Origin: an uncultured Fusobacteriaceae bacterium
GTDB lineage: Bacteria > Fusobacteriota > Fusobacteriia > Fusobacteriales > Fusobacteriaceae
Length of the DNA: 64,000 bases
Direction: 5' to 3'
NCBI GenBank assembly: GCA_947072665.1
Contig: CAMTIW010000001.1
Coordinates: 1 to 64,000 of the forward strand
Of the stretch, positions 40,527 to 42,773 are shown piece after piece (positions within the stretch are counted from its first letter, which is position 1; each line of letters begins with the position of its first letter). A model generated the notes under the pieces. The model saw only the letters and a program-made list of their open reading frames with translations. It made no database searches and was not told the DNA's origin. The position numbers were made by a program, and so were the translations under genes.

Positions 40527-42011
40527 CTACCAAACCTCTCTTGGTGTAGCTGAGTGTCCTGAAGATGTAGAATAAAAATATGTTTCAATAGGCCGATTGT
40601 TATATAGTAATATTTTTCCCTTTGTTTCATTTACTGCTTTGTCTACAATAGATGCTCCATCTAAATTATTATATACCTGACTACTTACAGTATCATCCAC
40701 ATGAATTCCATATTTACTATATTTTTTACTTAAAAATCCACTTATAGCAAATGTTCTAGCTGCTATGGCCTGAGCTTTTAATGGTTCCAATCCAAAACTA
40801 ATAGGCATTTCACTGGATACAACTTTTTTCAAATAATCTTCTATATTAACTATATTTATCAATAGTAAAGATGAACCATAAATTTTAACTTCAAATTTCC
40901 CTTTATACGTTGGATATTTTTCTGCTCTTATATTTCTTTTAATAGATAAAACTTGAATATCTTTATTAGAACTTATCTCAATCGGTGCTTTAGATGTCAT
41001 AATAGTCTTTCCAAAAACCTTAGCAAGAGTATTATTTCCACTTTTCTCAAATTCAACTGTTCTTTTAGAACTTACTTTAGTTTTTCCACTACTTCCTTTT
41101 AATGTTATTGTTCCACTGGATAATAACTTTATATTTCTGTGTAAAAGAGATGAATTATTTGTTATTCCTACTCTTAATTCATTTTTAAAATTATTTATTG
41201 ACGAGGTTTTTCCAATCTCAGCACCATTATAGTATCTCATTAAGATATCTTTATAATTATATCCTTTATTTTTTGCTAAATCGTAAGCTGTCCATTGTGG
41301 CATTCCTACCCCGTGACCAAAACCACCACCATAAAAATTATAATTTTTCCCTTTTTTTTCTATGGCAAAAAATCCAGAGGGAAACATCCTCATATTATTT
41401 CCCAAAATTTTTCCATTTCTATTTTTTAAAGAAATTGTTTTTTTCTTTCCTAAACTTCCAGTGGAAAAATTTAAAACTCTCCTTATATTCCCTTCTTTTA
41501 CAACAACAAAACTTCCTTTAGTTCCTACGATTAATAGGTCCATTACTATCCCAGAATTTCCTCTTCTCATAATAACTATATCTTTTAATGTACCTATCGG
41601 ATTAGTTTGTAAATTTTCTAAAACCCATCTTCTATTTTTCAAAGTATATACAGATGTCCTTACATTTTTTTTCAGATTATATAAATTTTTATTTAACATT
41701 CTATTTATATCTTCATCTGAAAAACTAACAGACCATCTCCAATACCCTGAATTAGAACCATTTCCCTCAATTTTAGTATTCTTATAAAAATCTACATATT
41801 TTTCTTCTTTACAGCCGTCTATTTTCTTCCCATTTTCAGTATCATTAACTAAATTAAAATAAGGAACAATATTTCCAGAAGAGATCTCTCTAACTGGAAG
41901 TTTTCTCTCTATATAACAATTATTATCCAACTTTGAATCTTTTTCTATTTTTTTTTCAATACTACTACAACCCACAAGAAGAAGTAATATTATCCCTATT
42001 ATCCCTTTCAA
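40527..42011 (-). CDS. SpoIID/LytB-domain lipoprotein with apparently permuted domain order
   Basis: A 494-residue lipoprotein: signal peptide with lipobox LLVGC (Cys15). SpoIID-type proteins are peptidoglycan lytic transglycosylases or their activators. The usual order is SEMP and AQA-AAR-TYA near the start and GxGxGHGVGMSQ near the end. Here GGGFGHGVGMPQW (228-240) with its YYNG follow-up (260-263) comes first, and SSEMP (399-403), AQAIAARTFA (413-422), TVSSQVYNN and YFYSTSSGHSATPREVW come last; the protein stops right after REVW where normal members continue into the part that is N-terminal here. All pieces of the domain are present once, so it looks circularly permuted. TTG start with GGGGG upstream. 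Confidence 0.85.
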   Translation of the reverse strand: MKGIIGIILLLLVGCSSIEKKIEKDSKLDNNCYIERKLPVREISSGNIVPYFNLVNDTENGKKIDGCKEEKYVDFYKNTKIEGNGSNSGYWRWSVSFSDEDINRMLNKNLYNLKKNVRTSVYTLKNRRWVLENLQTNPIGTLKDIVIMRRGNSGIVMDLLIVGTKGSFVVVKEGNIRRVLNFSTGSLGKKKTISLKNRNGKILGNNMRMFPSGFFAIEKKGKNYNFYGGGFGHGVGMPQWTAYDLAKNKGYNYKDILMRYYNGAEIGKTSSINNFKNELRVGITNNSSLLHRNIKLLSSGTITLKGSSGKTKVSSKRTVEFEKSGNNTLAKVFGKTIMTSKAPIEISSNKDIQVLSIKRNIRAEKYPTYKGKFEVKIYGSSLLLINIVNIEDYLKKVVSSEMPISFGLEPLKAQAIAARTFAISGFLSKKYSKYGIHVDDTVSSQVYNNLDGASIVDKAVNETKGKILLYNNRPIETYFYSTSSGHSATPREVW

Positions 42012-42035: not shown

Positions 42036-42773
42036 TTAGATTTTAATATTATTATTTTTTATATATTCTCTAACTTTAAACAAATCTTGCTCAGTATCTA
42101 CACCTATTATTTCATAGGTTGTTTCTAATACTTTTATTTTATATCCATTTTCTAAAACTCTCAATTGTTCCAAAGACTCTGAAGATTCAAGTGGAGTTTT
42201 TTCAAGTTCTGAATATTCTTTCACAAAAGTTGATTTATAACCATATATTCCTATGTGTTTATAATAATTACATATATTTAAATTTCTAGGATAAGGTATT
42301 ATACTTCTTGAGAAGTAAATTGCATAATCATTTTTATCTGTTACTACTTTTACAACATTAGGATTTTCTATCTCATTCATAGTATGAAGCTTATGTTTTA
42401 ATGTTCCCATAATAAGAGATGGTTCTTTTTTAAAAGCTTCGATTAAAGAGTTTATCATACTAATTTCTATTAAAGGTTCATCTCCTTGAATATTTATTAT
42501 AACATCATAATCCTTATAATTTTCAACAACTTCTGCTATTCTACTCGTTCCATTTTCATGATTATTCCTAGTCATTGCAACTTCTCCACCAAATCTTTTT
42601 ACCTCTTCATAGATTCTAATATCATCAGTGGCTACCACAACTTTATCCAGTTGTGATTTTAAACTTCTTTTATAAACCCACTCTATCATAGTATGTCCTT
42701 CTATATTTTTCAATGGTTTTCCTTCTAATCTTGTAGATGCATATCTCGCAGGTATAACTCCTAAAAATTTCAT
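42036..42773 (-). CDS. kdsB: CMP-KDO synthetase (3-deoxy-manno-octulosonate cytidylyltransferase)
   Basis: A 245-residue cytidylyltransferase that activates KDO for lipid A core synthesis. Motifs: IPARYASTRLEGKPL at the N-terminus, VVATDD, NIQGDEPLI and PNVVKVVTDK, YKHIGIYGYK, and GVDTEQDL at the end. It demonstrates that the organism makes LPS. GGGGGAT ribosome site. It begins behind the glyS terminator and is followed by the SpoIID lipoprotein gene and uvrA. Confidence 0.96.
   Translation of the reverse strand: MKFLGVIPARYASTRLEGKPLKNIEGHTMIEWVYKRSLKSQLDKVVVATDDIRIYEEVKRFGGEVAMTRNNHENGTSRIAEVVENYKDYDVIINIQGDEPLIEISMINSLIEAFKKEPSLIMGTLKHKLHTMNEIENPNVVKVVTDKNDYAIYFSRSIIPYPRNLNICNYYKHIGIYGYKSTFVKEYSELEKTPLESSESLEQLRVLENGYKIKVLETTYEIIGVDTEQDLFKVREYIKNNNIKI

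What the first reader, a model, noticed from the sequence alone, without database searches (positions are those of the whole stretch)
40527..42011. SpoIID/LytB lipoprotein with circularly permuted domain order
Seen: the block GGGFGHGVGMPQW...YYNG, normally at the C-terminal end of SpoIID domains, is at residues 228-263, while SSEMP, AQAIAARTFA and TVSSQVYNN, normally at the N-terminal end, are at 399-450, and the protein stops at REVW, exactly where the normal domain passes into the part that is N-terminal here. Each piece occurs once, behind an intact lipoprotein signal. Inference: a circular permutation of a peptidoglycan-processing domain, which would keep the fold while moving the termini and the membrane anchor.
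Basis: partly seen in the sequence, partly recalled or inferred. Interest (0 to 1): 0.8.

Follow-up and report, generated by a model that had tools for sequence, protein, structure and literature searches.

The report
Circularly permuted SpoIID cell-wall enzyme
A cell-wall-cutting enzyme of the SpoIID family has had its two halves swapped in sequence order while keeping its predicted fold and catalytic residues, and this form has replaced the ordinary version in a whole branch of fusobacteria; a second, differently cut permutation of the same domain turned up in actinobacteria.

Summary
The protein (494 aa, window 40527-42011, minus strand) matches the SpoIID/LytB profile and three SpoIID crystal-structure sequences in two stretches in swapped order. 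Nearly all invariant residues are kept, including the catalytic Glu (E401 = C. difficile E101). An AlphaFold2 model (pTM 0.84) has the secondary-structure elements of a canonical model, rotated.

It is not an assembly artefact. Among 98 Fusobacteriota genomes, 44 carry only the permuted form, 33 only the canonical form, 21 neither and none both. The permuted genera are one clade in an rpoB tree. The copy next to kdsB stops right after the same Trp codon in every genome inspected.

The permuted protein is not a simply rearranged native SpoIID. It groups with the longer SpoIID/LytB proteins of Bacillota and sits next to kdsB; the native gene before tilS-ftsH is gone from the eight permuted genomes checked. 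Acquisition from a Bacillota-like source is favoured, but an AU test does not exclude the alternative (p = 0.15).

A second permutation with a different cut point occurs in at least 27 of 120 sampled Actinomycetota.

Most likely function (inferred): a periplasmic lipoprotein that cleaves amidase-denuded glycan strands. No literature on permuted SpoIID was found in the library searched.

The parts
40527..42011 (-). Permuted SpoIID/LytB lipoprotein gene, 494 aa, TTG start behind GGGGG, TAG stop
   Evidence: TIGR02669 1.2e-50; PF08486 3.9e-24
41967..42011 (-). Lipoprotein signal, residues 1-15, lipobox LVGC; C15 invariant in 26 permuted proteins
41208..41864 (-). Half B, residues 50-268: the part that follows EVW and ends the canonical domain (YWRW region to YYNG)
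   Evidence: profile 145-269; HMM of both orders
41292..41330 (-). GGGFGHGVGMPQW motif, residues 228-240; G230, G232, H233, G234, G236, Q239 invariant in 26 of 26
41178..41222 (-). Linker, residues 264-278, joining the old C-terminus to the old N-terminus
   Evidence: alignments A1 and A6
40530..41177 (-). Half A, residues 279-494: N-terminal beta domain and first half of the SpoIID domain (PF08486 at 379-470), ending at W494
40809..40811 (-). Codon of E401, aligned with catalytic E101 of C. difficile SpoIID; Glu in 26 of 26
40530..40532 (-). Codon of the C-terminal Trp (W494); TGG directly before TAA/TAG in all kdsB-linked permuted genes read
42036..42773 (-). kdsB (CMP-Kdo synthetase), directly upstream of the permuted gene in every permuted genome whose locus was read
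   Evidence: PF02348 4.3e-61; synteny

Best explanation
The gene encodes a periplasmic lipoprotein whose whole SpoIID/LytB unit (beta domain plus catalytic domain) is circularly permuted. New termini were opened right after the invariant Trp of the EVW motif, and the old C-terminus was joined to the old N-terminus by a linker of about 15 residues. The chain refolds into the ordinary SpoIID fold with the active site intact, and probably works as an anchored lytic transglycosylase/muramidase on glycan strands stripped by an amidase. The permuted form arose once, from a long-type SpoIID/LytB protein like those of Bacillota. It was fixed next to kdsB in the ancestor of eight fusobacterial genera and took the place of the native canonical SpoIID. 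Shown by sequence: the permutation, its conservation, the replacement pattern. Supported by prediction: the fold. Inferred: enzymatic activity, anchoring, donor lineage.
For: Swapped-order matches to TIGR02669 and to three SpoIID crystal sequences. Census: 44 permuted only, 33 canonical only, 0 both, 21 none (full-length alignments). AlphaFold2 of the window protein: pLDDT 83.4, pTM 0.84, helix and strand order the rotation of the canonical model of Bacillus sp. EB01. The order-dependent Foldseek search finds SpoIID best for both models, but covers only 190 columns, TMt 0.36, E 2.6e-3 for the permuted one against 365-368 columns, TMt 0.66-0.72, E about 1e-12 to 1e-13 for the canonical one. E401 and most other checked residues are invariant in both orders. 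Permuted genera form one clade in rpoB (95*). The permuted proteins are a clade (99-100*) inside the long-type group (99*), apart from the native canonical proteins (99*). In eight permuted genomes tilS-ftsH is preceded directly by the radical-SAM or mltG gene, with no SpoIID between. Amidase_3 occurs in all 14 genomes tested.
Against: Activity is not shown. The model gives low confidence for residues 481-494, next to the new C-terminus. The AU test does not reject permuted plus native fusobacterial SpoIID as one clade (p 0.148), and two trees without outgroups left the placement open, so the donor is uncertain. No duplication intermediate was seen.
Confidence: 0.85

Rival explanations
1. Domain shuffling: the two halves are independent modules of different origin that were fused in the reverse order, not a permuted single fold.
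For: The halves are separable in profile searches, and the B-half tree did not recover the permuted group as one side of a branch.
Against: Both halves lie with the long-type proteins rather than with the native form by length and score; the A-half tree gives the permuted group 97*; the SpoIID crystal structures contain both halves in one chain; one compact model with pTM 0.84; actinobacteria cut the same domain at another point, which fits a closed fold better than two modules.
Confidence: 0.06
2. In-situ permutation of the native fusobacterial SpoIID followed by relocation, without transfer from outside.
For: The native form is missing wherever the permuted one is present; the AU test does not reject a joint clade (p 0.148).
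Against: The permuted proteins have the roughly 215-residue half B of the long type, the native ones a much shorter one; they nest in the long-type clade at 99* when outgroups are used; they lie at another locus.
Confidence: 0.15
3. Assembly or sequencing artefact.
For: The window's own genome is a draft in 228 contigs, 85% complete.
Against: The same order and end point occur in 44 genomes, several of them single-contig assemblies.
Confidence: 0.005
4. The permuted protein has lost enzymatic activity and serves as a peptidoglycan-binding or amidase-enhancing factor (LytB-like role).
For: LytB of B. subtilis is described as an amidase modifier (own knowledge); activity was not testable here; the loop before the new C-terminus is poorly predicted.
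Against: E401 and nearly all other checked invariant residues are kept in 26 of 26, including the catalytic Glu of the enzymatically active C. difficile SpoIID (PMC6221140).
Confidence: 0.15

Closest known systems
SpoIID/LytB domain proteins of Bacillota, long type (for example Brevibacillus L105, Bacillus sp. EB01 L107, Caloramator L096)
   Same: Same beta domain, catalytic half and long second half; same invariant residues; closest branch in the outgroup-rooted tree
   Different: Canonical order; longer N-terminal parts, in ORFs of about 600-1900 aa
Native canonical SpoIID of other Fusobacteriota (for example L057, L061)
   Same: Same family and phylum; TIGR02669 matched collinearly, 3-270
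   Different: Canonical order, short second half, mostly 370-402 aa in family f1, no lipobox in family f1, locus before tilS-ftsH
SpoIID of B. anthracis and C. difficile (4rwr, 5i1t, 5txu)
   Same: Catalytic Glu and GHGVGM motif aligned
   Different: Canonical order; sporulation protein; the window protein is below the cut-off of the spore_II_D equivalog (140.8 against 234.75 bits)
Permuted SpoIID/LytB proteins of Actinomycetota (L131, L132, L183, L189, L192, L194), found here
   Same: Also circularly permuted, with the old C-terminus joined to the old N-terminus
   Different: Cut just before the GHGVGM strand (profile about 195-220), not after EVW (profile 111)

Membership tests
SpoIID/LytB domain family (TIGR02669, PF08486) | Profile score above the curated cut-off | tested here: met
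   173 against 83.3 bits; 85.5 against 23 bits
SpoIID/LytB domain family (TIGR02669, PF08486) | Catalytic Glu and GHGVGM motif | tested here: met
   E401 = C. difficile E101, 26 of 26; motif glycines, His and Gln invariant
SpoIID/LytB domain family (TIGR02669, PF08486) | Collinear order along the whole profile (usual in the family; the profile itself is built on it) | tested here: not met
   2-111 at residues 384-494, 145-269 in the N-terminal half. Filed as a permuted variant, not as an ordinary member
Circular permutant | Both parts present once, in exchanged order, covering the whole unit | tested here: met
Circular permutant | Same fold with changed connectivity | tested here: inconclusive
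   Supported by prediction: and the order-dependent Foldseek contrast; no coordinates were available for a topology-independent superposition
Sporulation SpoIID (TIGR02870 equivalog) | Score above the equivalog cut-off | tested here: not met
   140.8 against 234.75 bits
Lytic transglycosylase on denuded glycans | Glycan cleavage | not testable with these tools
   Known for SpoIID of B. subtilis, C. difficile and Waddlia (PMC6221140, PMC6635528)
Bacterial lipoprotein | Lipobox with Cys behind a hydrophobic stretch | tested here: met
   C15 invariant in 26 aligned permuted proteins

The most novel reading that the evidence does not exclude
The SpoIID fold has been circularly permuted at least twice independently, with different cut points, in Fusobacteriota and Actinomycetota. 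In fusobacteria the permuted enzyme displaced the native one throughout a clade, and its new C-terminal Trp is held at the same residue because the terminus itself has a role at the active site or in regulation.
Probability: 0.35. Interest if true: 0.75.

Novelty: new variant of a known kind. Interest (0 to 1): 0.62.

Why it matters
Natural circular permutants that are fixed across a clade and can be placed on a species tree are not common, and none was found on record for this peptidoglycan enzyme family in the library searched. Here a permuted enzyme stands in for the native one in 44 of 98 fusobacterial genomes and none keeps both, so the permutation can be tested by exchange of genes. Annotation by PF08486 (97 positions) sees only one half and hides the rearrangement. 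Two different cut points in one fold bear on which breaks a fold tolerates.

Tried and rejected
Misassembly: rejected by the census. Descent of the permuted gene from the native one in situ: disfavoured by subtype, locus and rooted tree, but not excluded by the AU test (two earlier AU runs on the 118-row tree did not finish). Tandem-duplicated intermediate: none among the 121 collected SpoIID ORFs, and no in-frame remnant of half B after the stop was seen by eye, so duplication against fission-fusion stays open. A viral-contig scan found no relative. A first fragment alignment for structure prediction (A3) misplaced half B and was discarded; A5 was checked before use. Literature searches for SpoIID with circular permutation or permut* found nothing relevant. 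The JBC 2016 SpoIID structure paper is not held.

Full report
Observation. The ORF at 40527-42011 (-) encodes 494 aa behind a GGGGG ribosome-binding stretch and a TTG start. TIGR02669 (SpoIID_LytB) scores 173 bits in two stretches: 384-494 against profile 2-111, and the N-terminal half against 145-269. The SpoIID crystal sequences 4rwr, 5i1t and 5txu align in the same swapped order. Pfam sees only the half that PF08486 covers.

Anatomy. The protein reads: lipoprotein signal (C15 invariant in 26 permuted proteins); half B (about 50-268, the part after EVW in canonical proteins, ending GGGFGHGVGM...YYNG); a linker of about 15 residues; the beta domain that normally precedes SpoIID; half A (SSEMP, AQAIAARTFA, SSQVYNN, STSSG); stop after REVW. 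The catalytic Glu of C. difficile, E101 (PMC6221140), aligns with E401. Of 21 positions checked, 19 are invariant in 26 permuted proteins (the exceptions are Y260 and one Ile for W494), and 19 of the matching 21 in 28 canonical long-type proteins.

Structure. AlphaFold2 on an alignment of the window protein, two named permuted relatives and halves of canonical proteins gave pLDDT 83.4 and pTM 0.84. A canonical relative from Bacillus sp. EB01 gave 95.1 and 0.91. Read in rotated order, the helices and strands of the two models correspond (my comparison of the DSSP lines). Foldseek, which follows chain order, has SpoIID as best PDB hit for both, but over 190 columns with TMt 0.36 and E 2.6e-3 for the permuted model, and 365-368 columns with TMt 0.66-0.72 and E 2e-13 to 5e-12 for the canonical one. 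That contrast is what a permutation predicts. Residues 481-494 are modelled with low confidence.

Distribution. Among 98 Fusobacteriota genomes, 44 in eight genera of the window's family (g1-g7, g12) have the permuted form only. Another 33 genomes, in other genera of that family and in other families, have the canonical form only. None has both and 21 have neither. One contig of genus g3 agrees in length with a named Cetobacterium sp. UBA6069 contig, and the window's genus includes Fusobacteriaceae bacterium Go_Prim_bin_90 (identical rows). That Fusobacterium species are among g4-g7 is my inference from genome sizes. rpoB puts the permuted genera in one clade (95*) inside the canonical ones (the window's own draft genome has no rpoB hit). 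The gene stops right after the Trp codon (TGG-TAA/TAG) in every kdsB-linked locus read.

Origin. The permuted gene follows kdsB directly in every permuted genome whose kdsB locus was read. The canonical gene of other Fusobacteriota lies before tilS-ftsH and after a radical-SAM or mltG gene. In eight permuted genomes that locus has the radical-SAM or mltG gene directly before tilS. Re-ordered sequences put the permuted proteins (99-100*) among the long-type SpoIID/LytB proteins of Bacillota and Deinococcota, apart from the native canonical ones. Trees without outgroups were less clear, and the AU test does not reject permuted plus native as one clade (p 0.148). Displacement by a Bacillota-like gene is therefore favoured, not proven. 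The Bacillota sample was itself drawn by likeness to the permuted query. No duplication intermediate was found.

Second permutation. Two Solirubrobacter-group loci from the genome scan have GHGVGM...YYxGT directly behind the signal peptide, followed by the rest of the domain up to profile 195. A sample of 120 Actinomycetota genomes shows the same arrangement in at least 27 by my count of paired matches, and four further loci were confirmed with the half-domain HMMs. The cut point differs from the fusobacterial one, so the two permutations are most simply independent.

Mechanism. SpoIID enzymes cleave glycan strands stripped by an amidase, and a non-sporulating relative acts at the division septum (PMC6221140, PMC6635528). 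Amidase_3 is present in all 14 fusobacterial genomes tested. I infer that the permuted protein is a lipid-anchored periplasmic enzyme with that activity in septal or general remodelling. The Ser after the lipid-bearing Cys would suggest the outer membrane by the E. coli rule, which was not tested for fusobacteria.

Novelty. Circular permutation is a well-known kind of event (PMC3320104), and SpoIID/LytB is a known family. A permuted SpoIID is not described in the papers searched, which do not include most subscription journals.

Noticed in passing
L131:7905-9299, L132:7701-9131; also L183, L189, L192, L194: A second kind of circularly permuted SpoIID/LytB in Actinomycetota, cut before the GHGVGM strand; at least 27 of 120 sampled genomes.
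   Followed up: partly
L035:8314-9921 (-) (own genome, contig C49) and L036:6096-7700 (+): A second, divergent permuted paralogue in the window's genus, next to an HD-domain (YfbR-like) gene; the L036 copy ends IIK instead of W.
   Followed up: partly
L225-L232: In eight permuted genomes the native SpoIID gene between the radical-SAM or mltG gene and tilS-ftsH is absent, with those genes adjacent.
   Followed up: yes
Genomes G065, G066, G068-G081, G084-G086 (family f4): These genomes of one family show no SpoIID of either kind at the thresholds used; looks like a family-specific loss.
   Followed up: no
L055, L063, L070-L072 against L056-L069: Some canonical SpoIIDs of family f4 carry a lipobox, whereas those of the window's family f1 that were read have none.
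   Followed up: no
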